Assembly: GCA_936920195.1 (NCBI GenBank)
Contig: CAKZHE010000083.1
Span: 1-43,819 of the forward strand
Length of the DNA stretch: 43,819 bases
Source of the DNA: an uncultured cyanobacterium
Lineage (GTDB): Bacteria; Cyanobacteriota; Cyanobacteriia; Cyanobacteriales; FACHB-T130
Direction: 5' to 3'
The notes below the pieces were generated by a model that was given only the letters and a program-made list of their open reading frames with translations, was not told the DNA's origin and ran no database searches. A program made the translations under genes and the position numbers. The number at the start of each line of letters is the position of its first letter. Positions within the stretch are counted from its first letter, which is position 1. Positions 2,190 through 18,452 of this stretch are shown in pieces.

Positions 2190-2429
2190 CTCTATGACCT
2201 TATGCCTTCCTTAAAATCGTTCTTAATTTCATTCTGCTACTCTTATTGACTCTTGATGGCGGTATATGTTCCTATTTATCAACTGGCACGTGCTTTTTTT
2301 AAGGGAATAGAAAATATAATTCTACTTTTTTAAATCTAAATCAAGAGAAATAAAAGCAGTTTTTCAATGGCGCGATCGGGAACAGTTGCCAATAACAGGA
2401 CATCTTCCCTTCGGCTTGCCCAAGTTCTG
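2190..2429. other. Intergenic stretch without a gene
   Basis: No frame of convincing length or composition was found. The stretch holds the upstream region of the secreted-protein gene and AT-rich DNA leading to the repeat-type promoter at 2430. GCACGTGC followed by seven T at about 2286-2300 is a palindrome without a loop and is a weak terminator candidate only. Confidence 0.4.
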
Positions 2430-2446
2430 TTCACATTAAATTCACA
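2430..2446 (+). promoter_or_regulatory. Tandem 11-bp direct repeat, candidate regulator site (copy A)
   Basis: TTCACA at 2430-2435 recurs at 2441-2446, exactly 11 bp later, with AT-rich DNA between. Tandem hexamers one helical turn apart are the usual layout of sites for OmpR/PhoB-family response regulators. The same block occurs at 12215-12231 at nearly the same distance from a start codon (74 nt here, 73 nt there). Binding is inferred, not shown. Confidence 0.4.
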
Positions 2447-2503
2447 ATTTATGTTTATGGTGACAATTAAAAGGCTAGAAATCTAAATAAGTCTATTGAG
2501 GGT

Positions 2504-2614
2504 GTGACTGCGATCGCGCAGCAAATTATAGTTGAAAAACACCAAGGTGGCATCAGGGTTAATTCGGAGGTTGGTCTTGTTACAGAGTTTATGCTCTCCC
2601 TACCTATCAAATAG
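2504..2614 (+). pseudogene. Collapsed kinase gene: start codons fused to HATPase tail
   Basis: The frame GTG at 2504 to TAG at 2612 encodes 36 residues. It starts MTAIA, as the kinase at 12288 does. It continues [20 protein letters not shown] and ends [10 protein letters not shown], which matches the last 32 or so residues of the HATPase domains of the three neighbouring kinases ([11 protein letters not shown]...GTEFIISL). The junction is GCGATCGCG at 2510-2518. The living kinases carry the same octamer just before this ARQII segment, and the 12288 gene has a one-base variant of it (GCGATAGC) in its first codons. The simplest reading is a kinase gene of several kilobases lost by recombination between two HIP1 octamers. 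The G of the ATP lid is also changed (GLVTEF rather than GxGTEF). It can still be translated as a short peptide, but no function is expected. Confidence 0.75.
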
Positions 2615-2661: not shown

Positions 2662-5600
2662 ATGAAAGTAATTTCCAATTTACTAGGTTATCAAATCACT
2701 CAGCAATTATACGCAGGTACGCGCACCCTCGTCTATCGAGCTATCCGTACCGACGACCAACAACCCGTTGTCATTAAACTCCTGCGAAACGAATACCCCA
2801 CCTTCAATGAAATCGTTCAGTTTCGCAACCAATATACCATTACCAAAAATTTCAACTTTCCTAGTGTTATTCAACCATTAACTTTAGAAACATACCACAA
2901 TAGCTATGCCTTAGTTATGGAAGACTTTGGCGGAGTCTCTCTATCTGACTATCTGAAGATAGCCACAGATGAAAGCCAAAACCCCAAATCTTTACCTTTA
3001 GCAGAATTTCTGAATATCGCCATCCAACTGACAGATATTCTCCACTATCTCTACCAAAACCGCGTTATTCACAAAGATATTAAACCCGCCAATATTTTAA
3101 TTAACCCAGATACCAAGCAAATCAAATTAATTGACTTTAGTATTTCTTCCCTGCTGCCGCGAGAAACCCAAGAAATCCAAAATCCTAATATTTTAGAAGG
3201 AACCTTAGCCTATCTCTCTCCCGAACAAACCGGGAGAATGAATCGCGGCATTGATTATCGCAGCGATTTTTATTCCTTGGGGGTAACATTCTATGAATTG
3301 TTAACCGGGGAACTGCCCTTTGTGTCAGCAGATGCCATGGAATTAGTCCATTGTCATTTAGCTAAACACCCAATCCCCATTCATCAAATTAATCCTCAAA
3401 TTCCCTTAGCTTTGTCAGAAATAGTCAGCAAATTGATGGCAAAGAATGCTGAAAATCGCTATCAAACTGCCTTGGGAATCAAGCAAGATCTAGAGATTTG
3501 CTTAGAACAATTACAAAGAATAGGTAATATAGAAAGCTTTAAATTAGGAGAGCGAGATATTAGCGATCGCTTCACTATTCCCGAAAAACTCTATGGCAGA
3601 GAAAAGGAAGTAAATCAACTCTTAGCCGCCTTTGAAAGAGTCAGCACAGGTCACACCGAAATGATGCTGGTGGCGGGATTTTCAGGTATTGGTAAAACTG
3701 CCGCAGTCAACGAAGTCCATAAACCCATTGTCCGGCAACGGGGTTATTTCATCAAAGGCAAATATGACCAATTTAATCGGAACATTCCTTTTAGCGCCTT
3801 TGTCCAAGCCTTCCGGGACTTAATGGGGCAATTATTATCAGAATCTGACGAGCAACTACAAGCCTGGAAAAACCAGATTTTAGCAGCCGTAGGAGACAAC
3901 GGACAAGTCTTAACTGAAGTAATTCCTGAATTAGAAAATATTATTGGCAAACAGTCACCAGTCACAGAATTACCTGGCAGTGCCGCCCAAAATCGCTTTA
4001 ATTTACTCTTCCAAAAATTCGTCAAAATCTTCACCAGCAAAGAACATCCCTTAGTGATGTTTTTAGATGACTTACAATGGTCAGATTCCGCATCCCTAAA
4101 TTTATTGAAATTACTCCTGCAAGAGACGGGATATTTATTGGTATTAGGTGCTTATCGGGATAATGAAGTCTCGCCAGTGCATCCATTTATCTTAACAGTG
4201 AATGAGATCGTTAAAACTGGGGTAACTGTAAATAAAATTACCTTACCACCTTTAAGCGAACCAGATATGAATCTGTTGATAGCAGATACGTTAAATTGTG
4301 AGTTGTCTCTGGCTCAACCATTAACAAAATTAGTTTATCAAAAAACCCAAGGAAATCCTTTCTTTGCTACCCATTTTCTCAAAGCATTACATGATGATAA
4401 GCTGATTAGCTTTGATTGGGATATCCAACATTGGCAATGCGATATTGCCCAAGTTAAAGCTTTAGCGATCGCTGATGATGTGGTAGAGTTTATGGCTTTG
4501 CAATTGCAAAAATTGCCGACACAAACTCAGGATATGCTCAAGTCAGCGGCTTGTATTGGAGCCGAGTTTGATTTGAATACCTTAGTTATTGTTAGCGAGC
4601 AATCGGCAGGAGCGACGGCTACGGCTTTATGGAAAGCATTGCAAGAAGGCTTGGTAATTCCCACCACCAGAATTTATAAATTCTTTACCCAATTGGAGAG
4701 TGAAGAAGCCTTTAATAGTTCAGCCAATCCAACTTATCGGTTTTTGCACGATCGCGTTCAACAAGCTGCCTATTCTTTGATTCCAGAGTCTGAACGCGCG
4801 ATCGCTCATTACCACATCGGTCAACTGCTGCTGCAAAAAATATCCCCAGAAACTAGAGAATACCGCATCTTTGAACTCGTCAATCAATTAAACTATGGGA
4901 CAGCTTTAATTACCGAACAAACCGAACGCGACGAACTCGCTAAACTCAATCTCATCGCCTGTCGCAAAGCGAGAGTCGCTACCGCCTATAAAGCAGCGCG
5001 TGAATATGCCGCAGTGGGATTATCTTTGTTGGGAGAAAATACTTGGCAACAGCAATATGAAATGAGTCTCGGCTTCTATGAATTAGCGGCGGAGGTGGCA
5101 ATGTTATGCGGTGACTTTGAGGCGATGGAACAGTTTATTGATCTTGTCATCCAACAGACATATTCTTTACTGGAACAGGTCAATATTTACCGCATTAGGA
5201 TTCAAGCCAAGACTTCCCAGCGTCAACTCAGTGAAGTGTTGGAGATCGGCATCGATCTTCTACAAAAGCTGGGCTTAACAATCAATGAATCACCCACACC
5301 AGAAGATATTCAACAGTCAGTTCAAGCAATTACAGAACTGATTGGCGATCGCAAAATAACAGATTTTGTTTACCTCCCTGTGATGACAGATGCGAACAAA
5401 ATTGCTATTACCCAGATTGCCAGTAGCATCATGTCAGCAATTTACACCAGTGGCTCTCCTTTGTATTCATTACTAGCTGCCTTATTAGTCAAATTATTCC
5501 TACAACATGGCAATATATCTGTTTCTTCTACCAACTATGCTTGCTATAGTGTAGTTCTTTGTAATATGCAGCAAAATATCGATTTAGCGGCACAATTTGG

Positions 5601-8055
5601 GCAGTTGGCATTGAATGTGGTATCAAAATTCGATGATAAAGCAAGTAAACCTGAAGTATTTTTGCTGCTAGGTTTTTTTATTCTCCACCGCAAATCTCAC
5701 CTCAAAGAAACGCTACCCCTGTTGAGTGAAGGTTACATACTGGCGCTAGAAGTGGGAAATCTGGAATACGCTGGATATAATGCTAACACTTTTTGTCGAT
5801 ATTCTTTTTGGTGCGGTCAACCCCTTGCTAACTTGGAACGAGAAACGCACACCTACTATAATACTTTAGTGCAATTAAAGCAATTGGGAACAGCTAATTA
5901 CTGTCTGATTTATTGGCAAGTAATTTTAAATTTAATGGGTTTTGCAGAGCATCCCACCATTTTGTCTGGCTCGGCTCTCCAAGAGACAGAATTTCTCCCC
6001 TTTCTGCGGTCTGCAAATGATTTATATGGATTATTTGTTTTCCATTCATATAAGTTGACCCTTTGCTTTTTATTTGGTGAAGTTGAGCAAGCTAACAACC
6101 ATGTACTTGAGTGCAAAAATTATTTCATGGGGTGTGCGGGAACCATTGGTGAACCTGTATTTTATTTCTATGATTCATTAATTGCCATATCACAATTGAG
6201 CCAACCGTCCAGCGACATATCAACTGTATTAGAGCGAGTGGCACAAAATCAAACTCAATTACAGCTATGGGCGCACCATGCACCAATGAATCACCAGCAT
6301 AAGGTTGATTTGGTAGAAGCTGAAAAATATCGAGTGTTAGGAAAAACAGCCGAAGCAATTGAGTTTTATGACAAGGCAATTTCTGGAGCCAAAGCCAACG
6401 AATACATTCAAGAAGAAGCGCTAGCCAACGAACTTGCGGCAAAATTCTACCTCGACTGGGGCAAACAACGGATAGCTCAGGAGTACATGACCGAAGCCTA
6501 CTACGGCTATGCTCGCTGGGGTGCAAAAGCCAAAGTCGCTGATTTAGAAAATCGCTATCCCCAATTACTTGCCCCCATATTACAGCAAACCCGTTCTCCC
6601 TTCTCCACTCGCGAAACCATCTTTGCCTTGGGGACTGTCACCTCCACCAGTGGAGCAACTTCCAGCAGTAGTGTCTCAGATAGCCTAGATTTAACCGCTA
6701 TTCTCAAAGCTTCTCAAACTATGTCAGGTGAAATTGAACTGGAAAAACTGGTTTCTGCGTTACTTTCTATCGTCATCGAAAATGCTGGGGCTGATAAATG
6801 CGTATTCATGCTGATGCGAGACGATCGCTTACTAGTTAAAGGGTCAATTACTGAAGGTACGGAGCCAGTTGTATTGCAGCGTGTTCCTGTTGAAGAGAGT
6901 CAAGATATTCCCCTAAAACTAATTTACAAAGTCAAGCATAGCCATCAGACGATTGTTCTACTGGATGCAACAGCAGATCCCACCCTAACTAATGATTCAT
7001 ATATTGTACGTCAGCAACCCAAGAGTATTTTTTGTAGCCCGATTTTACATCAAGGGAAATTGAAGGGCATTTTATATCTAGAAAATAACCTGACGGTGGG
7101 AGCGTTTACCAGCGATCGCATTGAAGTCCTGAATCTAATTTGCGCTCAAGCTGCTATTTCCTTAGAAAATGCCCGTCTGTATCAAGCGGCACAACAAGCC
7201 TTAAACGATCTCAAACAAGCTCAATTGACTATTGTCCAAAGTGAAAAAATGTCAGCCTTGGGGAATTTAGTCGCAGGAGTGGCGCACGAAATTAATAACC
7301 CCGTTGGTTTCCTCAATGGTAATATTCAACCTGCTTTAGATTACATCAGCGATATTTTCCAATTGTTCGATCTAGTTCAAGAAAAATATCCTCAATTGCA
7401 CCCAGATATTCAAGCAAAAATAGAAAATATTGAGCTAGATTACATCCGAGAAGATTTACCAAAGTTAGTTAGCTCGATGCGGGAAGGGGTAAAGCGAATT
7501 GCCGATATCAGCACCAGTTTGCGAACCTTCTCCCGTGCGGATACTAACTACCCGGTTGCCTGCAATATCCATGATGGAATTGATAGTACCATTATCATCC
7601 TCAAACATCGCCTTAAAGCTAACGAAATTCGTCCCGAAATTAAAGTAATTAAAGAGTATGGAAATTTACCCCAAATCGAATGTTATGCCGGACAGCTAAA
7701 TCAGGTATTTATGAATTTGTTGAGCAATGCCATTGATGCGTTAGAAGAATCAAATCAAGGGCGTAAGTATGCAGGCATTGCCAATAAAATTACTATTAAA
7801 ACTGAGTTGTCAGAAGATAAAAATCAGGCAATAATTCGGATTAAAGACAATGGAATTGGCATGAATGCGGAGGTTCGGAATCAAATTTTTGAGCATTTAT
7901 TTACTACAAAAAATGTAGGGAAAGGGACGGGATTGGGATTGACGATCGCGCGGCAAATCATTGAAGAAAAACATCGAGGTAAAATCGAAGTTAATTCTAG
8001 CCTAAATAACGGTACAGAGTTTATTATCTTGCTCCCAATTAAAGAGCGGATTTAA
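2662..8055 (+). CDS. Ser/Thr kinase - AAA ATPase - GAF - histidine kinase fusion (HstK type)
   Basis: I prefer the ATG at 2662 (1797 residues). AGGAG ends 9 nt upstream, and the protein then begins like its paralogue ([16 protein letters not shown]). An ATG at 2632 adds 10 residues. Residue numbers below count from 2662. Residues 5-270: protein kinase fold with VVIKLL (Lys39), [10 protein letters not shown] (Asp139), IDFS in place of DFG (Asp158), and SPE in place of APE. Residues 310-560: AAA/STAND ATPase with Walker A GFSGIGKT (339-346) and Walker B VMFLDD. Residues about 750-1320: helical, TPR-like. Residues about 1342-1510: GAF. Residues about 1520-1797: histidine kinase with AHEINNP (His1542), N box [15 protein letters not shown] and GKGTGLGL. 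The whole protein has no membrane segment. Such fusions are known in cyanobacteria as HstK-type kinases. The ligand of the GAF domain is unknown. Confidence 0.93.
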
Positions 8056-8132: not shown

Positions 8133-10820
8133 ATGAAGTCTCAAGCTAATTCCGCTAAAACTCTACCTTTACAACTTGTTCTAGTAGTTCCGTTCGTGTT
8201 GCAAATCTTTGCTGCCGTTGGACTGACTGGTTATCTATCATTGCGAAATGGACAGAAAGCAGTCAATGATGTTTCCAGTCAGTTGCGGCAAGAGATGAGC
8301 GATCGCATTAACCTGGAAGTCCTCAACTATTTGGAAAGACCTTATATTGTTGGACAAGTTCTAGTTGCGGCGGCTCAAGAGGGGCGGCTTGATTTAACAG
8401 ATGTCACCAAACTAGAACAAACTTTTTGGCAATTAGTCAGCAAAGAAACCGTCAACTTCATTGAAATGGCTCTGGCTGATGGCACAGATATAGGAGTAGA
8501 AAATACTCCTAGCCGAGGTATTATAGCTTTTGTTGGGAACAAAGCATATCTACCTCAACGCAAAATTTACCAACTTGGTGATAGAGGTCAACGGATAGCG
8601 TTGATCAAAATTCAACCAAATTTTGATCCTCGAAATCGGCCTTGGTACAAAAATGTTCAAAAAGCTGGAAAGCCTATTTGGACAAAGCCTTTTTTGGGCA
8701 GTGCCGATCGAGCTATTTCAATTGCCTTAACTCAACCTATATATGACAAAAATGGCGCGTTATTGGGCGCTCAAAATAGTATCTTTCGCATTGAAAAAAT
8801 TCATCGTTTTCTTAGTTCTGTCAAAGTAGGCCAGACAGGACAAACTTTTATCATCGATCGTTCTGGTCAATTGATTGCAAGTTCAAGGCTCGACAAGCCT
8901 TATAACATTGAACCCCAAAAAAATGATTTACAACAAATTCCCGCTGTCAAATCTGAAAATTCTGTCATTCGTGCCACCGCCCAAGCAATTCTGGATCGCT
9001 TCGGGACTTTTAATGCCATTGCCGAAAGCCAACAACTGGATTTTATGCTGGCAAATCAGCACCAGTTTGTTCAAGTTTCAACTATTCGCAACGAACGAGG
9101 CATCGATTGGCTGAGTGTCATTGTTGTCCCAGAATCAGATTTTATGGCAGAAATTGATGCCAATACCCGCAGCACAATTTTCCTCTGTTTGGGGGCATTA
9201 GTTTTGGCAACAATTCTGGGGATTTATACCTCCCGATGGATTGCCCAGCCGATTTTGAAATTGCAGCAAGCTAGCGAAGCCATTGCCACAGGGGAACTAG
9301 ATCGCCGGGTGGAAATGAACGATATTAAGGAGTTAGCTGGGTTGGCGATCGCATTCAACCAAATGGCAACGCAACTCAAAAGTTCCTTTACGGAACTCGA
9401 AGATCGGGTGGCAGAACGCACGGTAGAACTGCAACAAGCGAAAGAAGTTGCTGATAGTGCTAACCAAGCCAAGAGTTCTTTTTTGGCGAATATGAGTCAC
9501 GAACTTCGCACCCCTTTAAATGGAATTTTGGGTTATGCCCAAATCCTCGATCGCTCCCCAACATTATCCCAGAAAGAACGGCAGGGAATTAATATTATTT
9601 ACCAATGCGGTTCTCATTTACTTACCCTGATTAACGATGTCCTCGATCTATCCAAAATTGAAGCCCGCAAACTAGAACTGTATCCTAGTGCTTTGCATCT
9701 GCCCTCTTTCCTACAAGGGGTGGTAGAAATTAATCGCATTCGTACCGAACAAAAAGGCATTGATTTTAAATTTTATGCCGACGATCGTCTCCCCACTGGA
9801 GTTTACGCCGATGAAAAACGCTTGCGGCAAATACTGATTAATCTACTTGGTAATGCCATTAAATTTACTGACAAAGGCAGCGTCACTTTTAAGGTTGAAC
9901 AGAACGGGGAGAAAATTCGTTTCCAGGTACAGGATACTGGAGTAGGGATGACTCCAGAACAGGTGAAAAAAATCTTTCTCCCCTTTGAACAAGTGGGGGA
10001 TCTCAAAAAACAAACGGAAGGGACTGGATTAGGACTAGCAATTAGTCAGAAAATTGTTTCCATTATGCAGAGCAAAATCACAGTAGAAAGCGTCTTGAGT
10101 GAGGGCAGTACGTTTTCTTTTGAAGTAGAACTGCCGGAAGCCAAAGATTGGGCGACGACTTCTAGAGCCATGCAGCAAGGTGTTGTCACTGGATATCAGG
10201 GGGAAAAACGTAAAGTTTTGGTGATTGATGACCGTTGGGAAAATCGATCGGTGTTAGTGAATCTACTAGAACCGATTGGGTTGGAAATTATCGAGGCAAG
10301 CAATGGTCAAGAAGGTCTAGAACAAACCTGGAATGAATCGCCAGATTTAATTATTATCGACCTAGCTATGCCTGTGATGGATGGATTTGAGTTTTTGCGG
10401 CAAATGCGATCGCATCCTCAACTCAAAGATCGCATTGTAGTGGTTTCTTCTGCTAGTGTATTTGATATCGATCGTCAGAAAAGTCTTGATGCTGGGGGCA
10501 ATGATTTCTTGCCAAAACCCGTTCAGGCTGACACCCTCCTAGAACTGCTAGAAAAATATCTTCAACTGACTTGGATTTACGAGGTTAATCAGAACCAAAA
10601 TGCTGCGATTAACCTTGATCAAATGGAACCGCCCAGTCCAGAAATTTTACAGCAACTAGCTGAATTAGTTCAAGATGGCGAACTTGATGGTGTCGTGGCG
10701 ATCGCCCAACAAATTCAGGAGACTCATGCGAACTTTGCCCAACAACTGATTTATTTATCAGAGGAGTGCGAACTTGTCAAGCTCCGAGCCTTAATTCAAA
10801 AATATCTTGTTAATTTTTAG
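8133..10820 (+). CDS. Membrane hybrid histidine kinase: Cache - HAMP - HisKA - HATPase - receiver
   Basis: An 895-residue sensor. Membrane helix 1 is at about 11-36 and helix 2 at about 346-368 ([19 protein letters not shown]). Between them lies a periplasmic Cache-type domain (RPWYKNV..., [16 protein letters not shown]) that usually binds small ligands. HAMP follows (369-422), then a coiled coil ([20 protein letters not shown]). HisKA has [10 protein letters not shown] with His456, HATPase has NLLGNAIKF and TGLGLAISQ, and the C-terminal receiver has VIDD and IIIDLAMP with Asp743 and the conserved Lys in LPKP. All catalytic residues are present, so it should be active. AGGGA precedes the ATG. 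It lies 78 nt after the HstK-type gene and only 12 nt before the next gene, which suggests one operon. Its HisKA class differs from that of its four neighbours. Confidence 0.93.
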
Positions 10821-10832
10821 GAACAAAATTTT

Positions 10833-12110
10833 ATGCCTTCTTCAGCTCAACCTTTTATCCTGATTGTGGATGACAATGCCACCAACTTGTCCATTCTTTC
10901 TAAAGCTTTGAAAGCCGCAAATTATAAAGTGCGAATGGCCACCGATGGCGAAGATGCTCTAGGACAAGTAGAACGGGCTAAACCAGAACTAATTTTGCTT
11001 GACATTCAAATGCCAAAAATGGATGGTTTTGAAACCTGCCGCCGCCTCCAGTCAAACCCTGCCACTGAGAATATACCAATCATTTTTATGACGGCGCTAA
11101 CGGATACCGAAACCAAAGTTAAGGGCTTATCTCTGGGAGCCGTAGATTATATTACCAAACCTTTTGAACAAGAGGAAGTATTAGCGAGAGTCAAAGTCCA
11201 CTGGCGATTAAAACAACTCACCGACTCATTAGAACAACAGGTAGCAGAACGAGCCAAGGCACTTCAACAAGCCCAAATCAAACTAATTCAAAGCGAAAAA
11301 ATGTCCGCCCTCGGCAATCTTGTGGCTGGGGTTGCCCACGAAATTAATAACCCGTTGGGGTTTATTTCTGGCAATATTAAAGAAGCGATCGCTGCTGTAG
11401 TTGATCTGAAAGAATACCTGCAACTCTATGAGGAAAAATGCCCTATTCATAGTCAGGAAGTTGCCGCAAAAGCTGAGAAAATTAACTTGGAATATATTTT
11501 AGAAGATTTACCTAAGATGCTCTCTTCCATCCAAGTAGGGTGCGATCGCATCAAAGGTATCAGTACCAGTTTGCGAACTTTTTCCCGGGCAGATAAAGAT
11601 TATCAAGTTCCTTTTAATATTCACGAAGGCATCGACAGCACCATTCTCATCCTCAAGCATCGTCTCAAAGCGAACGAAAATCGTCCCGATATTGAAGTCA
11701 TTACGGACTATGGCGATCTGCCTCTGGTTGAATGCTTCCCCGGACAACTCAATCAGGTATTTATGAATATTCTGGCGAATGGCATTGATGCCTTAGAAGA
11801 ATCAAATACTGGGCGTAGTTTTGCTGAAATCAAGACCAATCCCAACCGCATCACTATTCAAACTTCAGCGACAGAAAATCAAGTCAAAATTATTATTGCT
11901 GATAATGGCATAGGGATGAGCGAGGAAGTTAAAAAGAAGATGTTTGACCACTTATTTACCACCAAAGCAGTTGGTAAAGGGACGGGATTGGGATTAGCGA
12001 TCGCACGGCAAATTATTGAAGAAAAACACCAAGGTAGCATCAGCGTTCATTCAGAAATTGGTGTTGGTACAGAATTTATTATATCCTTATTCATCAAGCA
12101 ATATAGATAA
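10833..12110 (+). CDS. Receiver-first histidine kinase
   Basis: A 425-residue soluble protein. Residues 8-125 form a CheY-like receiver with VDDN (Asp13, 14), LLDIQMPKMDGFE (phospho-acceptor Asp57), Thr in FMTAL and Lys in TKPF. A coiled coil (about 125-150) leads into a histidine kinase with [20 protein letters not shown] (His169), NQVFMNILANGIDAL, ADNGIGM and [14 protein letters not shown]. It starts 12 nt after the hybrid kinase, with AGGAAC upstream, so the two are surely co-transcribed. The order receiver then kinase suggests that phosphorylation of the receiver, perhaps by the hybrid kinase just upstream, controls the attached kinase. That step is inference. There is no DNA-binding domain. 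Confidence 0.92.
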   Translation: MPSSAQPFILIVDDNATNLSILSKALKAANYKVRMATDGEDALGQVERAKPELILLDIQMPKMDGFETCRRLQSNPATENIPIIFMTALTDTETKVKGLSLGAVDYITKPFEQEEVLARVKVHWRLKQLTDSLEQQVAERAKALQQAQIKLIQSEKMSALGNLVAGVAHEINNPLGFISGNIKEAIAAVVDLKEYLQLYEEKCPIHSQEVAAKAEKINLEYILEDLPKMLSSIQVGCDRIKGISTSLRTFSRADKDYQVPFNIHEGIDSTILILKHRLKANENRPDIEVITDYGDLPLVECFPGQLNQVFMNILANGIDALEESNTGRSFAEIKTNPNRITIQTSATENQVKIIIADNGIGMSEEVKKKMFDHLFTTKAVGKGTGLGLAIARQIIEEKHQGSISVHSEIGVGTEFIISLFIKQYR

Positions 12111-12123
12111 TATAAATATTTTA

Positions 12124-12159
12124 CAGGACTTACACAGAACCTCTATATATAGCGTTTTG
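12124..12159. repeat. Dispersed AGGACTTAC repeat, copy 1
   Basis: The block CAGGACTTAC at 12124-12133 is followed by CA, CTCTATATATAGCGTTTT. Related copies lie at 29602 and 43742. AAGTCCT at 12207-12213 is the inverse of AGGACTT at 12125-12131, so this copy could be one end of a 90-bp element lying between the kinase genes. Confidence 0.5.
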
Positions 12160-12188
12160 TAGGGGCAATCCCCCCGTGGTTGCCCCTA
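12160..12188. terminator. Hairpin, candidate terminator after the three-gene kinase operon
   Basis: TAGGGGCAA (12160-12168) and TTGCCCCTA (12180-12188) form a perfect 9-bp stem with an 11-nt loop. It lies 50 nt after the stop of the receiver-first kinase. There is only a weak T run after it, so it may be a dispersed hairpin repeat that serves as a terminator on either strand. Confidence 0.4.
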
Positions 12189-12214
12189 TTTCTAGGATAG
12201 TTGCTCAAGTCCTA

Positions 12215-12231
12215 TTCACATTAAATTCACA
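12215..12231 (+). promoter_or_regulatory. Tandem 11-bp direct repeat, candidate regulator site (copy B)
   Basis: TTCACA at 12215-12220 and again at 12226-12231 with TTAAA between. The block TTCACATTAAATTCACAATT is the same as at 2430. It lies 73 nt before the ATG of the second HstK-type kinase. Its conservation in front of both a living gene and a collapsed one marks it as part of the ancestral promoter. Confidence 0.45.
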
Positions 12232-12287
12232 ATTTATATTTATTATTATCTTGAGAAGACGGGAAACCAAAGAGGGCTATTAAGGGT

Positions 12288-15200
12288 ATGACTGCGATAG
12301 CAAACTTACCAGGCTATCAGATCGTCGAGGAACTTTACGCGGGTACGCGCACTATTGTTTATCGAGGTATCCGTATCCGCGATCGCCACCCCATCGTGAT
12401 TAAAATTTTGCGAAACGAATATCCCAATTTTACCGAAATTCTCCAGTTTCGCAATCAATATACTATTGGCAAAAATCTCAACTTTCCTAGCCTTATTCAA
12501 CTCCTGAGCCTCGAACCATACCAGCATACCTATGCCTTAATCATGGAGGATTTTGGGGTAATTTCCCTGCCAACTTATCTCAAAACGCTCATAAATCAAG
12601 CCCAACTATCTCCAGCTTTACCTTTAGCAGAATTTCTGCAAATTGCCTGCCAACTGGCAGATATTCTCCACTATCTTTACCAAAACCGAGTTATTCACAA
12701 AGATATTAAACCCGCCAACATTTTAATTAATCCAGAGACTAAACAAATTAAATTAATTGACTTTAGTATTGCCTCCCTGCTGCCAAGGGAAACCCAAGAA
12801 ATTCAAAATCCCAATGTTTTAGAAGGAACCTTAGCCTATCTTTCTCCCGAACAAACTGGCAGAATGAATCGCGGCATTGACTATCGCAGCGACTTTTATT
12901 CCCTGGGAGTGACATTTTATGAATTATTAACCGGAGAATTGCCCTTTGTCTCCGAAGATGGGATGGAATTAGTTCATTATCATCTGGCGAAACAGGCTAT
13001 ACCTATCGATCAAATTAACCCAGATATTCCCGTAGTTTTGTCAGCCATTGTCAGCAAGTTGATGGCGAAAAATGCTGAAGATCGCTATCAGAGTGCATTA
13101 GGACTGAAACACGATCTAGAGATTTGTTTAGTTCAGTTACAAGATACAGGCAAAATAGAAACTTTTGAAATTGGTCAGCAAGATACTAGCGATCGCTTTA
13201 TTATCCCCGAAAAGCTCTACGGTAGAGAAAAAGAAGTAGCTCAACTATTAGATGTCTTTATGCGGGTAGCCTCTCCCCAAGGGACAAAAGCCAATACAGG
13301 CAACACCGAAATGATTCTAGTCGCTGGTTTTTCTGGTATTGGGAAAACCGCCGTTATCAATGAAGTTCATAAACCAATTGTTCGCCAACGCGGTTATTTT
13401 ATTAAAGGCAAATACGATCAATTTCAACGTAATATTCCCTTCAGTGCCTTTGTGCAAGCTTTCCGCGACTTAATGGGGCAATTGCTCTCGGAATCCGATC
13501 TGCAAATCCAAACCTGGAAAACCAAAATTCTCACAGCATTGGGAGATAACGGACAAGTTTTAATTGATGTCATTCCCGAATTAGAAGAGATTATCGGCCA
13601 ACAGCCCCCAGCCGCCGAACTGTCAGGAACTGCGGCAAAAAATCGCTTTAATTTGTTATTCCAAAAATTTGTGCAAGTCTTTACCAGCATTGAACATCCT
13701 TTAGTTATATTTTTGGATGACTTGCAATGGGCAGATTCAGCCTCTCTGAATTTATTGCAATTACTGATGCCAGATACCAAACATTTATTAATCTTAGGAG
13801 CCTATCGAGATCATGAAGTTTCTCCGGTACATCCCTTGATTTTAACAGTTAACGAAATTATCAAAGCTGGGATAACAGTCAATACCATTACTTTATCTCC
13901 CTTAAGGGAAATAGATTTGAATCAGTTGGTCGCAGATACCCTGAATTGCGAACTATTGCTGGCGAAAGTCTTAACCAAGTTAATCTATCAAAAAACCCAA
14001 GGAAATCCTTTTTTTGCCACTCAATTTTTCAAGTCATTATACAACGATCGGCTGATTAAATTTGATGGGGAGATTGGTAATTGGCAGTGCGATATTGCCA
14101 AGATCAAAGCCTTAGCCATTACTGATGATGTGGTAGAGTTTATGGCTTTGCAGTTACAAAAATTACAGCCAGAGACTCAAAATATTCTGAAACTAGCGGC
14201 TTGTATTGGAGCCGAATTTGATTTGCATACCTTAGTAATTATCAGCGAAAAATCTGTCGGAAAAACAGCCATGACTTTATGGAAAGCATTACAAGAAGGC
14301 TTAGTAATTCCCACCGCTAGAATCTATAAATTCTTTGCCCAAGCAGATAAAGAAGAAGTTCTTCAAACTTCAGCCAATCCAACTTATCGGTTTCTGCACG
14401 ATCGCGTTCAACAAGCTGCCTATTCTCTGATTGCCCCTGCTGAAAAGCAAACAACTCATTTCTCCATTGGGAAGTTACTTCTACAAAACTTGTCCTCCTC
14501 AGAGCGAGAAGAACGTATTTTTGAAATTGTCAATCATTTAAACATTGGCAAAGAATTAATTACTGCGGCAAGTCAACAAAAAGAACTAGCTGAACTTAAT
14601 TTATTAGCTGGCATCAAAGCTAAAGCTGCTACCGCATACGTGGGGGCATTTGCATATATTACTGCGGGGATGGAACTTTTATCCCCGGATTGCTGGGAAC
14701 AAAATTACCATCTAAGCCTATCGTTTTTTAAAGAACGAGCCGAACTAGAATATTTAACGAGTAACTTTGCACAGGCAGAACGTTGGCTTCAGCAAGCTTT
14801 AGAAAAGGCGAAATTACCCTTAGAAAAAGCGGAAATTTATAATATGGCGATTGTGCAATATACTATGCAGGCTAAGTATCCTGAAGCTATTCAAGCTGGT
14901 CGGCAAGCCCTAGTATTAGTTAATATTTATTTGCCTGAAAAAGACTTTGATACAGTATGCAATACCGAACTAGCACTAATTCAAGAAACCTTGAAAAACC
15001 GTTCATTTTCTGACTTGTGCGATTTGCCAATTATGACCCAGCCAGAGCAAAAAATCGCCATCAAACTATTAATTAGTATGGGACCGCCTACCTATCGCTC
15101 CCATCAAAGATTGTGGTCGGTAATTTGTGCAAAAGCGGTTAATTTATGCCTGCAATATGGTAATACACCAGAGATTGGATATATTTATCCTGCATTTGGT

Positions 15201-18200
15201 GGCTTACGCGGATACGCACTGAATAATTACCAGGATACGGAAAAATTACTGGATGTTACGCTCCAGCTAATGCCAGTCTTTAATAATAAATCAGCCGAGA
15301 GCGTGGCTTATCTGATGATTGGTAGCTCTCTCAGACATTGGTCGCATCCGTTAAAAGTTGCTAGTCAAGATTATCTCCTATCCTATCAAGCAGGCTTAGA
15401 TTCTAGTAATTTACAATATGCGGCCTACGCCTTTGGACATAATATGTATTGTCGGTTTTATCAAAGTATTTTCCTCGAACATTTGTTTGAGGAAATCGCA
15501 GAATCCTTGGTTTTTAGTCAGAAATATAAAAACCAGTGGGCGATTGATTTATTCCTAGGTGGTCAGATCGTTTTGGCTGAATATATTGGGATGGCAGTTA
15601 ACTTCAGCGAATCCGATTATTTAGCCCAATGTCGCCAGCATAAAAATTGGCAAGTCATTTGTATTTATAACATTTTGAAAAGTCAGTTGCTGTTCGTTTA
15701 TGAACGGTGGGAAGAAGCATTTGCATACAGCGCCCAAGCGGAATCGGAAATCGTTAATGTGGCTCCCCAAGGCTTGTTAGTCTATGTTTATCATTGCTTT
15801 ATTTATGCACTTTTATTAATCGTCCAGTATCCTAACTTGCCCCAGGAGCAACAGTTAAGTTGTTGGGAAAAGATTTTTATTTGTCAGCAACAACTGGAGG
15901 TTTGGGCAGCGAAAAATCCGGTTAATTTTCTACATTTATGCTGTTTAGTTAAAGCCGAAATAGATCGGGTTTCTGGCAATTTTTTAAAGGCGATAGATAA
16001 TTACGATCGCGCGATCGCTGGAGCAAAAGAATCTAAACATATTCAAGAGGAAGCGATCGCCAATGAACTAGCTGCCAAATTTTATCTCGGCTGGGGCAAA
16101 GAAAAAGTAGCGCAAGTCTACATGACTGAAGCCTACTACTGCTATGTTCGCTGGGGAGCTAAAGCCAAAGTAGAGGATTTAGAAAAACGTTATCCCCAAC
16201 TCCTATCATTTGTCCTGCAACACCCGCACGCGGCAGATTCATTGAAAGAAACAATCGCGCCGAAAACGATTGCTCTTAACCAAACTTCTAGCAGTATTTT
16301 GGAAGGGCTAGATTTGGATATCTTGCTCAAAGCTTCTCAAGCAATTTCTGGAGAAATTGAACTTGAACGACTTTTGGCAACTCTCTTAGAAATAGTGATT
16401 ACTAATGCGGGGGCAAGTAAGTGTATTTTATTACTTCAACAAGATTTACAGTTAAAAGTAGTGGCTCTGATAGAAGAGGGAAAATTGCCGGAAATATTAC
16501 CATTCATTCCCCTAGAATTAAGCTCAGATCTAGCCCTTAGTTTGGTAAATACGGTTAAGCGAACTTTGAAACCTCTGGTATTAGCAGATGCGAGGATAAA
16601 TTCTCAGTTTGCGGCTGATAGTTACATCCAAAATCACCAGCCCAAAAGCGTTCTTTGCAGCCCAATTTTAAATCAAGGGCAGTTGATTGGAGTTTTATAT
16701 TTAGAAAATAATCTCACGGTGGGGGCGTTTACAAACGATCGCGTCGAGTTGCTCAACTTAGTTTGCGTTCAAGCCGCAATTTCTTTACAAAATGCCCAAC
16801 TTTATCAAAATTCCCAAAACTATGCTCAACAGTTAAGTCAATCTGTCGCCAAATTGCAGGCGAATGAAATTCGCTTCCAAAATTTAGCTAATAATATTCC
16901 GGGGATGGTGTATCAATTCCGAATGGCGGTAGACGGGGCAATTTCCACTCCCTACGTCAGTTCTGGTTGCCTAGATTTGTATGAAGTGGAGCCAGAATTG
17001 GTAATGGCAGGGAAATTTAGTCTTTACACTCTGCATCATCCTGACGATAACCCAGCCATTGAAAAAGCGATCGCCTATTCTGCCCAACATCTCACTCCCT
17101 TCGCGCAAGAATGGCGAATTATTCTGCCTTCAGGCAAGGTGAAATGGATTCAATCTGCGGCTCGCCCAGAACGACAGACAGATGGGGCAATTCTATGGGA
17201 TGGAGTGGTAATTGATATTAGCGATCGCAAACGGATTGAAGCCGAACAAACCCGCCTGCTAGCAATTCTAGAAAGTACCTCAGACTTTATTGGCACAGCC
17301 GATCCCAGCGGTAAAAATCTTTATCTCAATCAGGCTTGGCGCAATCTTTTAGGTGTAGAAGATGGATCGGGACAAAAGGGAAATGAAATTGACAAATATC
17401 ACCCAGATTGGGCAACAGAAATAATCGTCAATCAGGGCATACCAGAAGCTATCCGTTCTGGTATTTGGGTGGGCGAAACAGCAGTAATCGATCGGTATGA
17501 ACGGGAAATTCCAGTTTCTCAACTTATCCTGGCTCACAAATCGAGTGATGGCGAATTAGAGTATTTTTCTACGATTGCTAGAGATATTAGCGATCTCAAA
17601 CAAGCTGAACTGGCTGCCGAACAAGCCCAATTGCAAATGATTCAAAGTGAAAAAATGTCAGCATTAGGTAATCTTGTCGCGGGGATTGCCCATGAAATGA
17701 ATAATCCTTTGGGATTTATTTCCGCCAGTCTTAAACAAGCTCAACCTACTCTAGTAGATTTGATTGCCCACTTGCGATTGTATCAACAAAGTTTTCCCCA
17801 TCCCAGCCATGAAATTCTCGCTCATGCCGAAGAAATTGACTTGGAATATAGCTTAGAAGACTTGCCAAAAATGGTTAATGGGATGGAAATGGCGTGCGAT
17901 CGCCTCAAAAATATTAGCACCAGTCTCCGTACTTTTTCCCGTGCTGACAAAGACTATAAAGTATTATTTAATATCCATGAAGGCATCGATAGTACAATTT
18001 TAATTCTCAAACATCGTCTCAAAGCCAACGAACATCGCCCAGAGATAGAAGTAGTCACTGAATATGGAAATTTACCCAAAATTGAATGTTTTCCAGGTCA
18101 ATTAAATCAGGTATTTATGAATATTTTGGCAAATGCCATTGATGCTTTAGATGAATCAAATATTGGCAAAAGTTTTGTAGAGATTAATGCAGATACTAAT

Positions 18201-18452
18201 CGAATTACTATTGCCACATCATTAGACAACTCAGGAATACAAATTAGCATTGCCGATAATGGTCGAGGGATGAGTGAGGAAGTGAAGCAAAAGATTTTTG
18301 AGCATCTATTTACCACGAAGGGAGTAGGGAAAGGCACGGGGTTGGGATTGGCGATCGCGCGGCAAATTATTGAAGAAAAACATCAAGGTCAAATTACTGT
18401 GAACTCAGCAATTGGTTTTGGCACCGAGTTTATTATATCTTTACCAAGTTAA
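12288..18452 (+). CDS. Ser/Thr kinase - AAA ATPase - GAF - PAS - PAS - histidine kinase fusion
   Basis: A 2054-residue paralogue of the 2662 gene with two extra PAS domains. Residues 5-270: kinase fold with [16 protein letters not shown] and IDFSIA in place of DFG. Residues 310-560: ATPase with GFSGIGKT and VIFLDDLQW. A long helical repeat region follows. GAF is at about 1341-1507. PAS 1 at about 1529-1647 has a PAC-like end VVIDISDRK, and PAS 2 at about 1657-1767 ends IARDISDLKQ. The histidine kinase at about 1780-2054 has AHEMNNP (His1802), with Met where the paralogues have Ile, then NQVFMNILANAIDAL and [14 protein letters not shown]. The start MTAIANLPGYQI is supported by AAGGG upstream and by identity of the promoter region with that of the relic at 2504. 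It is soluble and probably transcribed from its own promoter. Confidence 0.93.
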   Translation: MTAIANLPGYQIVEELYAGTRTIVYRGIRIRDRHPIVIKILRNEYPNFTEILQFRNQYTIGKNLNFPSLIQLLSLEPYQHTYALIMEDFGVISLPTYLKTLINQAQLSPALPLAEFLQIACQLADILHYLYQNRVIHKDIKPANILINPETKQIKLIDFSIASLLPRETQEIQNPNVLEGTLAYLSPEQTGRMNRGIDYRSDFYSLGVTFYELLTGELPFVSEDGMELVHYHLAKQAIPIDQINPDIPVVLSAIVSKLMAKNAEDRYQSALGLKHDLEICLVQLQDTGKIETFEIGQQDTSDRFIIPEKLYGREKEVAQLLDVFMRVASPQGTKANTGNTEMILVAGFSGIGKTAVINEVHKPIVRQRGYFIKGKYDQFQRNIPFSAFVQAFRDLMGQLLSESDLQIQTWKTKILTALGDNGQVLIDVIPELEEIIGQQPPAAELSGTAAKNRFNLLFQKFVQVFTSIEHPLVIFLDDLQWADSASLNLLQLLMPDTKHLLILGAYRDHEVSPVHPLILTVNEIIKAGITVNTITLSPLREIDLNQLVADTLNCELLLAKVLTKLIYQKTQGNPFFATQFFKSLYNDRLIKFDGEIGNWQCDIAKIKALAITDDVVEFMALQLQKLQPETQNILKLAACIGAEFDLHTLVIISEKSVGKTAMTLWKALQEGLVIPTARIYKFFAQADKEEVLQTSANPTYRFLHDRVQQAAYSLIAPAEKQTTHFSIGKLLLQNLSSSEREERIFEIVNHLNIGKELITAASQQKELAELNLLAGIKAKAATAYVGAFAYITAGMELLSPDCWEQNYHLSLSFFKERAELEYLTSNFAQAERWLQQALEKAKLPLEKAEIYNMAIVQYTMQAKYPEAIQAGRQALVLVNIYLPEKDFDTVCNTELALIQETLKNRSFSDLCDLPIMTQPEQKIAIKLLISMGPPTYRSHQRLWSVICAKAVNLCLQYGNTPEIGYIYPAFGGLRGYALNNYQDTEKLLDVTLQLMPVFNNKSAESVAYLMIGSSLRHWSHPLKVASQDYLLSYQAGLDSSNLQYAAYAFGHNMYCRFYQSIFLEHLFEEIAESLVFSQKYKNQWAIDLFLGGQIVLAEYIGMAVNFSESDYLAQCRQHKNWQVICIYNILKSQLLFVYERWEEAFAYSAQAESEIVNVAPQGLLVYVYHCFIYALLLIVQYPNLPQEQQLSCWEKIFICQQQLEVWAAKNPVNFLHLCCLVKAEIDRVSGNFLKAIDNYDRAIAGAKESKHIQEEAIANELAAKFYLGWGKEKVAQVYMTEAYYCYVRWGAKAKVEDLEKRYPQLLSFVLQHPHAADSLKETIAPKTIALNQTSSSILEGLDLDILLKASQAISGEIELERLLATLLEIVITNAGASKCILLLQQDLQLKVVALIEEGKLPEILPFIPLELSSDLALSLVNTVKRTLKPLVLADARINSQFAADSYIQNHQPKSVLCSPILNQGQLIGVLYLENNLTVGAFTNDRVELLNLVCVQAAISLQNAQLYQNSQNYAQQLSQSVAKLQANEIRFQNLANNIPGMVYQFRMAVDGAISTPYVSSGCLDLYEVEPELVMAGKFSLYTLHHPDDNPAIEKAIAYSAQHLTPFAQEWRIILPSGKVKWIQSAARPERQTDGAILWDGVVIDISDRKRIEAEQTRLLAILESTSDFIGTADPSGKNLYLNQAWRNLLGVEDGSGQKGNEIDKYHPDWATEIIVNQGIPEAIRSGIWVGETAVIDRYEREIPVSQLILAHKSSDGELEYFSTIARDISDLKQAELAAEQAQLQMIQSEKMSALGNLVAGIAHEMNNPLGFISASLKQAQPTLVDLIAHLRLYQQSFPHPSHEILAHAEEIDLEYSLEDLPKMVNGMEMACDRLKNISTSLRTFSRADKDYKVLFNIHEGIDSTILILKHRLKANEHRPEIEVVTEYGNLPKIECFPGQLNQVFMNILANAIDALDESNIGKSFVEINADTNRITIATSLDNSGIQISIADNGRGMSEEVKQKIFEHLFTTKGVGKGTGLGLAIARQIIEEKHQGQITVNSAIGFGTEFIISLPS

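What the first reader, a model, noticed from the sequence alone, without database searches (positions are those of the whole stretch)
2504..2614. A kinase gene collapsed between two HIP1 octamers
The 36-codon frame joins the start of an HstK-type gene (MTAIA) to the last HATPase residues. The join is GCGATCGCG. The living paralogues have a HIP1 site at the matching place in the ATPase (before ARQII), and a HIP1 variant in their first codons. So an entire kinase gene of perhaps 6 kb seems to have been removed by recombination between HIP1 repeats, leaving promoter, start codon and tail. This would be a direct footprint of HIP1-mediated deletion.
Basis: partly seen in the sequence, partly recalled or inferred. 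Interest (0 to 1): 0.7.

Follow-up and report, generated by a model that had tools for sequence, protein, structure and literature searches.

The report
Kinase gene collapsed at HIP1 octamer
A 36-codon scrap in a cyanobacterial genome joins the promoter and first codons of a giant signalling kinase to the last 34 codons of one, with the join inside a HIP1 octamer, so it looks like the scar of a deletion between two short repeats.

Summary
Window 2416-2517 is the promoter and start of an HstK-type gene (77% identical to 12201-12301). From 2510 on it is the end of a histidine-kinase ATPase domain (79% to 11997-12097). The switch falls inside GCGATCGC at 2510-2517. A paralogue on C27 (1934 aa) has exact HIP1 at both places in the same frame, the only shared word of 8 or more bases between its first 90 and last 210 bases. 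Of 77 such tails in the genome this alone lies in a short frame. G364, same order, keeps eight tandem HstK-like genes before matching HK and RR-HK genes. So at least one kinase was probably lost from an array; whether one (about 5.5-6 kb) or several is open. Special HIP1 machinery is not shown: 14 of 102 usable repeat pairs in intact paralogues contain HIP1, 0 of 21 simple indels between two congeneric genomes lay at HIP1, and none of the eight G364 genes has HIP1 in its first 60 bases. HIP1-bordered deletion is known since 1993 (citations only). G364 has a second, decayed orphan tail behind the same rare promoter motif.

The parts
2430..2447 (+). 18-base promoter-region motif TTCACATTAAATTCACAA (two TTCACA hexamers 11 bases apart)
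   Evidence: Identical before three intact HstK starts in the genome (window 12215, C27, C135) and once in G364; found in 2 of 388 sampled class genomes
2416..2517 (+). Left half: upstream region and first codons of an HstK-type gene
   Evidence: 77% identical to 12201-12301; 2421-2517 is 77% to C135:17324-17417
2504..2614 (+). 36-codon chimeric frame (GTG start, TAG stop)
   Evidence: Translation; the only one of 77 tail matches in the genome in a short open frame (47 aa stop to stop; the other 76 have 366 or more)
2510..2517 (.). HIP1 octamer GCGATCGC, the join
   Evidence: Similarity switches from starts to tails inside it
2510..2614 (+). Right half: last 34 codons and stop of a histidine-kinase HATPase domain
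   Evidence: 79% to 11997-12097; 74% to C27:22806-22914; tail profile 57.7 bits; 80% to a tail in G364
2662..8055 (+). Next HstK-type gene (likely true start 2662; longest frame from 2632); 47 bases lie between the remnant's stop and 2662
   Evidence: Pfam Pkinase, AAA_16, GAF, HATPase_c; spacing like that of tandem HstK genes in C27 (39) and G364 (23-85 in 6 of 7 gaps, 355 in one)
8133..10820 (+). dCache-HAMP hybrid histidine kinase (anchor of the cluster)
   Evidence: Pfam; 66% identical best match behind the array in G364
10833..12110 (+). Receiver-histidine kinase (anchor); its tail carries an exact HIP1 at 11997-12004
   Evidence: Pfam; 63% match next to the HK in G364; HIP1
12288..18452 (+). 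Intact HstK-type paralogue with the same promoter motif; GCGATAGC in first codons, GCGATCGC in the tail (18351-18358)

Best explanation
The 36-codon frame is what is left of one or more tandem HstK-type kinase genes. A deletion joined a HIP1 octamer in the first codons of the leading gene to the HIP1 octamer in the ATPase domain of the last deleted gene, leaving promoter, start site and 34 C-terminal codons in one reading frame just ahead of the next kinase gene. The likeliest route is short-homology recombination (replication slippage or single-strand annealing) over 8 identical bases. Shown: the chimeric structure, the switch inside the octamer, the kinase-cluster setting. Inferred: that the left parent had a perfect octamer, that a single event did it, the mechanism, and that the frame has no function of its own.
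For: Two-sided homology with a sharp switch in the octamer. The C27 paralogue carries exact octamers at both places in the same frame, and this is the only shared word of 8 or more bases between its first 90 and last 210 bases. The remnant is the only one of 77 tail matches in a short frame. The upstream motif otherwise stands only before intact HstK starts in this genome. The number of HstK genes beside the matching HK and RR-HK pair varies: eight in G364, one in G448, none next to it in G141 and G006. In one search (15 of 46 first-look candidates in G000 scored) no other copy matched at more than 79% over more than 30 bases, so a mis-assembled chimera of present copies is unlikely.
Against: No close strain with the intact gene was found (only one genome of genus g1 among those searched). 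The nearest relative of the left half has GCGATAGC, not HIP1, and 0 of 8 array genes of G364 have HIP1 in their first 60 bases, against 7 of 8 in their last 180. The two halves are nearest to different genes, so 'one gene' is not proven. One-to-one correspondence with the G364 array is not established: the 2662 gene is nearest to array gene 7 (69%), not to gene 8 (63%), which holds its position. The frame is open, but the neutral chance of that is 0.52-0.86 in a simple simulation without indels, so openness does not tell decay from use; 3 of 16 conserved residues are privately changed, against 0-4 of 16-18 in intact tails.
Confidence: 0.82

Rival explanations
1. A narrower reading of the best explanation: the deletion is real, but HIP1 is incidental. 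Any 8-base repeat pair could have been used, and HIP1 was used only because it is frequent. No HIP1-binding or HIP1-cutting factor is involved.
For: In four intact HstK-type genes, 102 direct-repeat pairs of at least 8 bases span at least 4.5 kb; 14 contain HIP1 (C27a 5 of 28, 12288 6 of 49, C135 3 of 13, 2662 0 of 12). 0 of 21 simple indels of 15 bases or more between G001:C3 and G004:C57 lie at HIP1 (0 of 10 of 30 bases or more), although HIP1 is dense there (242 in 180 kb). A gene missing in G005 against G003 shows no HIP1 at the break.
Against: 14 of 102 is a minority share. Published statements link HIP1 to a deletion border and to illegitimate recombination (passages in PMC11395459 and PMC4390886; originals not held).
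Confidence: 0.6
2. The short frame is a maintained leader: the deletion was kept because it puts the next kinase (2662-8055) behind the array promoter, and the in-frame mini-ORF keeps ribosomes moving up to 47 bases before its start.
For: The join is in frame; shifting it by one or two bases ends the frame after 8 or 9 codons. Promoter motif and a GAGG before the start are kept. G364 also has an orphan, though decayed, ATPase tail behind the same motif and ahead of an HstK gene.
Against: The G364 tail is of another tail type (nearest G364 gene 6, score 58; against the window remnant only 27, within the shuffle range) and is out of frame with the GTG that aligns with the remnant's start, so nothing is conserved as a peptide. 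No transcription data.
Confidence: 0.15
3. Assembly or binning artefact: two unrelated copies joined in a short-read assembly.
For: The genome is in 326 contigs and the remnant lies 2.5 kb from the contig's end.
Against: Neither half is near-identical to another copy found in the genome (best 79% and 77%, apart from a 30-base piece at 90%; 15 of 46 candidates scored), which a chimera of present copies would require. An 8-base overlap is far shorter than assembly words (general knowledge).
Confidence: 0.03
4. The similarity on the left is chance and the piece is only a 5'-truncated tail.
For: The tail carries HIP1 natively in most relatives compared (13 of 15 intact tails listed).
Against: The left half matches HstK promoters over about 100 bases including an identical 18-mer found in only 2 of 388 sampled genomes, and runs up to the octamer.
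Confidence: 0.02

Closest known systems
[quoted passage not shown] 1993)
   Same: A deletion involving HIP1 in a cyanobacterium. Title seen in the reference lists of PMC6331805 and PMC11395459; [quoted passage not shown] The paper itself is not held.
   Different: That one was found in cadmium-tolerant cells (title). This one is an older natural scar in a kinase cluster, in frame, with both halves diverged from their nearest relatives by about 20%.
HstK / cbSTKIII dual kinases (Alr2258 and relatives of Anabaena; survey PMC2176072, passages read)
   Same: Neighbours and both parents are kinases with a Ser/Thr-kinase start, GAF and a histidine-kinase end; adjacent duplicates such as Alr0709 and Alr0710 are known, and the survey speaks of domain shuffling, deletion and duplication.
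   Different: The remnant has no kinase domain left, only start codons and the end of HATPase_c.
Microhomology-mediated deletion pseudogenes in bacteria (general knowledge)
   Same: An 8-base direct repeat, one copy kept, the intervening DNA lost.
   Different: The repeat is the genome's own over-represented octamer.

Membership tests
HATPase_c histidine-kinase tail | Matches the C-terminal part of the profile | tested here: met
   Pfam 78-109 of 111, 16.6 bits, below gathering 26.4; own tail profile positions 7-40, 57.7 bits
HATPase_c histidine-kinase tail | Complete ATP-binding domain | tested here: not met
   Only the last 34 residues are present
HstK / cbSTKIII gene | HstK-type promoter region and start | tested here: met
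   77% over about 100 bases to the 12288 gene; identical 18-mer
HstK / cbSTKIII gene | Ser/Thr kinase, GAF and HisKA domains | tested here: not met
   Absent from the 36 codons; present in the 2662 and 12288 genes (HisKA there below Pfam's cut-off)
HIP1-bordered deletion | One octamer at the join | tested here: met
HIP1-bordered deletion | Intact relatives carry the octamer at both borders | tested here: met
   Met by one paralogue: C27, both exact and in the same frame. C135 start only; 12288 tail exact, start one mismatch; G364 array 0 of 8 starts, 7 of 8 ends
HIP1-bordered deletion | Orthologous undeleted allele in a close strain | not testable with these tools
   No other genome of the genus among those searched; the G364 array is only similar in layout
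HIP1-bordered deletion | HIP1-specific mechanism rather than any microhomology | tested here: inconclusive
   14 of 102 repeat pairs; 0 of 21 indels in one genome pair

The most novel reading that the evidence does not exclude
HIP1 octamers sit in phase at the start and in the ATPase end of some HstK genes, so tandem arrays can shed their leading gene in frame by HIP1-HIP1 recombination and so re-promote the next kinase. The remnant here and the decayed orphan tail behind the same rare promoter motif in G364 would be two independent cases, which would make HIP1 a standing device for turnover of signalling arrays.
Probability: 0.08. Interest if true: 0.65.

Novelty: new member of a known kind. 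Interest (0 to 1): 0.4.

Why it matters
What HIP1 does is still open (Elhai 2015, PMC4390886, passages read). Natural scars in which both parents can still be recognised help to test whether HIP1 promotes deletions or is merely a common repeat. This one is clean on the structure but does not settle the mechanism, and the single indel control points towards 'merely a common repeat'.

Tried and rejected
Synteny in the same family: relatives of the genes at 1190-1744 and 1752-2189 lie side by side in all five family genomes fetched, but no HstK cluster lies in the 19 kb taken around them, so they give no undeleted allele. A gene missing next to them in G005 compared with G003 has no HIP1 in the 60 bases printed at either G003 break or the 130 bases at the G005 break. 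The one scan of genome contigs with the 1752-2189 protein gave 3 loci (Trichocoleus sp. FACHB-40, a metagenome-assembled cyanobacterium and Hyella patelloides), 38-51% identical, so none very close; the tool may leave out records of the window's own genome.

Search for further collapsed genes of the same form (start codon, one codon, HIP1, then a codon and CAR-ATH): 173 of 388 genomes have matches. I tested 50 sites (30 fetched automatically, 20 chosen from the printed list, which was itself incomplete); only the window's own runs into a full ATPase tail from its start (59.0 bits). The next best from the start is L124 with 10.6 bits over 15 residues. L131 and L135 match far inside long kinase frames.

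The idea that tail swapping between paralogues also breaks at HIP1 (the 10833 gene's tail is 87% to G364 gene 5 after the octamer and 76% before it) was looked at and left as too weak. Loss of coding constraint in the remnant could be neither shown nor excluded. The table of HIP1 sites in own HstK genes printed 15 genes; 10 of the 20 regions fetched gave no row under my text filter and were not counted.

In the indel control seven complex gaps were not scored. In one search the shuffles kept base composition only, and the best of 300 shuffles reached 10.5 bits against 12.3 for the G364 tail, so that profile evidence alone is weak; the DNA alignment (58 against at most 40 in 500 shuffles) is stronger.

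Full report
What is there. The window is the whole of contig 83 of a 5.7 Mb cyanobacterial genome (G000, 326 contigs). G004, in the same family, appears to be Trichocoleus sp. FACHB-40, because contig lengths agree at 261,582 (inference). At 2504-2614 there is a 36-codon frame with a GTG start. Its left side, 2416-2517, is 77% identical to 12201-12301, which is the upstream region and start of the intact HstK-type gene 12288-18452, and 77% (from 2421) to the start of a second such gene on C135. Its right side, from 2510, is 79% identical to 11997-12097, the end of the receiver-histidine kinase, and 74% to the end of an HstK-type gene on C27.

The join. Around GCGATCGC at 2510-2517, the 24 bases to the left match three kinase starts at 19, 16 and 13 of 24 but eight tails at 5-8 of 24. 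The 24 bases to the right match the starts at 5-6 of 24 and the tails at 19-21 of 24. The switch therefore lies within the octamer. The gene C27:17106-22910 (1934 aa) has an exact octamer in codons 3-5 and another in its ATPase domain, both read as A-I-A, so a deletion between them would give an in-frame product of the same shape as the remnant. Its first 90 and last 210 bases share one exact word of 8 or more bases, and that is HIP1. C135 has the octamer at the start only. Gene 12288 has GCGATAGC at the start and GCGATCGC in the tail. The starts of the other two close family members, 2662 and C27:22950, have no octamer.

It is an orphan. The 12288-type ATPase tail has 77 matches in the genome. 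The other 76 lie in open frames of 366 residues or more; the remnant's is 47. In the DNA search no other copy in the genome reached 80% identity to either half, apart from one 30-base piece at 90% (15 of 46 first-look candidates were scored), so it is probably not a chimera of present copies put together by the assembler.

The setting. In G364 (same order, another family) eight HstK-like genes in a row precede matches of the window's 8133 and 10833 genes. Five of the eight were scanned (genes 1, 2, 5, 7, 8): all five have Pkinase, GAF and HATPase_c, and four have AAA_16. G448 has one HstK there. In G141 and G006 the HK and RR-HK pair stands without any next to it. So the number of kinases at this place changes between lineages. 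The seventh G364 gene carries GCGATCGCGCAGCAAATT in its tail, the same 18 bases as the remnant, although over the whole tail the remnant is nearer to G364 gene 5 and to the window's 12110 tail (77% each) than to gene 7 (66%). By position the window's 2662 gene corresponds to G364 gene 8, but by sequence it is nearer to gene 7 (69% against 63%), so the two clusters cannot be matched gene by gene. The remnant's stop lies 47 bases before the 2662 start; the gaps between the G364 genes are 55, 46, 23, 48, 355, 48 and 85 bases. The remnant thus has the promoter of an array's leading gene on its left and a gene end in array spacing on its right. One gene or several may have gone.

A second orphan tail. 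The 18-mer TTCACATTAAATTCACAA occurs in 2 of 388 sampled class genomes: four times in G000 (before three intact HstK starts and before the remnant) and once in G364. There it lies between array genes 5 and 6 and is followed by a stretch reading IVVKEHQSILEVELVVDRGAHLYRRLTV. This aligns with the tail of G364 gene 6 (67 of 103 aligned columns; score 58 against a maximum of 40 in 500 shuffles). It does not align with the window's remnant beyond the shuffle range (27), so it is probably a separate loss. No exact HIP1 is left at its join.

Mechanism. Short-homology deletion over 8 bases is the simplest account. Whether HIP1 is more than a convenient repeat is open. In four intact HstK-type genes, 14 of 102 direct-repeat pairs (at least 8 bases, at least 4.5 kb apart) contain HIP1. 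Between G001:C3 and G004:C57, of one genus, none of 21 scored simple indels of 15 bases or more has HIP1 at its ends, in sequence with 242 HIP1 in 180 kb; seven complex gaps were left out. The sample is small, only 10 indels were of 30 bases or more, and the genomes are not G000. In the G364 array, 7 of 8 genes have HIP1 in their last 180 bases but 0 of 8 in their first 60, so the start octamer is not a general feature of HstK genes.

Function. The frame is probably a remnant without function. It is open, but so would half or more of neutral copies be (0.52-0.86 for 0.3-0.05 changes per site, point changes only). Private changes at conserved residues are 3 of 16, within the range of intact tails (0-4 of 16-18). 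That the deletion put the 2662 gene behind the array promoter is plausible and untested.

Literature. [quoted passage not shown] its reference list holds Gupta et al. 1993, which I could not read. PMC4390886 (passages read) says there is some indication of a role in site-specific recombination and, at much lower efficiency, illegitimate recombination, and no evidence linking it to homologous recombination. PMC2176072 (passages read) describes the cbSTKIII or HstK family with adjacent duplicates and domain shuffling. My searches listed no paper that I recognised, from its title and the start of its abstract, as describing such a collapsed HstK gene; the library holds open-licence papers only.

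Noticed in passing
2430-2447 and 12215-12232; also C27:17039-17056, C135:17391-17408, G364 C6:2255845-2255862: The 18-mer TTCACATTAAATTCACAA, two TTCACA hexamers 11 bases apart, is found five times in 388 sampled genomes, each time before an HstK start or an orphan HstK tail. It looks like a dedicated regulator site for these genes (inference).
   Followed up: partly
G364 C6:2255648-2256002 (between array genes 5 and 6): A decayed second orphan HATPase tail behind the same motif, most like the tail of the next gene.
   Followed up: partly
10833-12110: The tail of the receiver-histidine kinase is 87% identical to the tail of HstK gene 5 in G364 but 59% to that of its best match there, which suggests exchange of tails between paralogues.
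   Followed up: partly
12150-12218: A dispersed intergenic repeat: 96% copy on C273 of the same genome, and short 82-100% matches; 48 of 388 class genomes, own included, have a match.
   Followed up: no
G000 C322:1239-1373: Another HstK-type start with one TAA inside its match, in a 3.2 kb contig: a possible pseudogene or contig-end piece.
   Followed up: no
L029 and L031 (G003, G005): A 736-codon gene present beside the 1752-2189 homologue in G003 is missing in G005, with no HIP1 at the break.
   Followed up: partly
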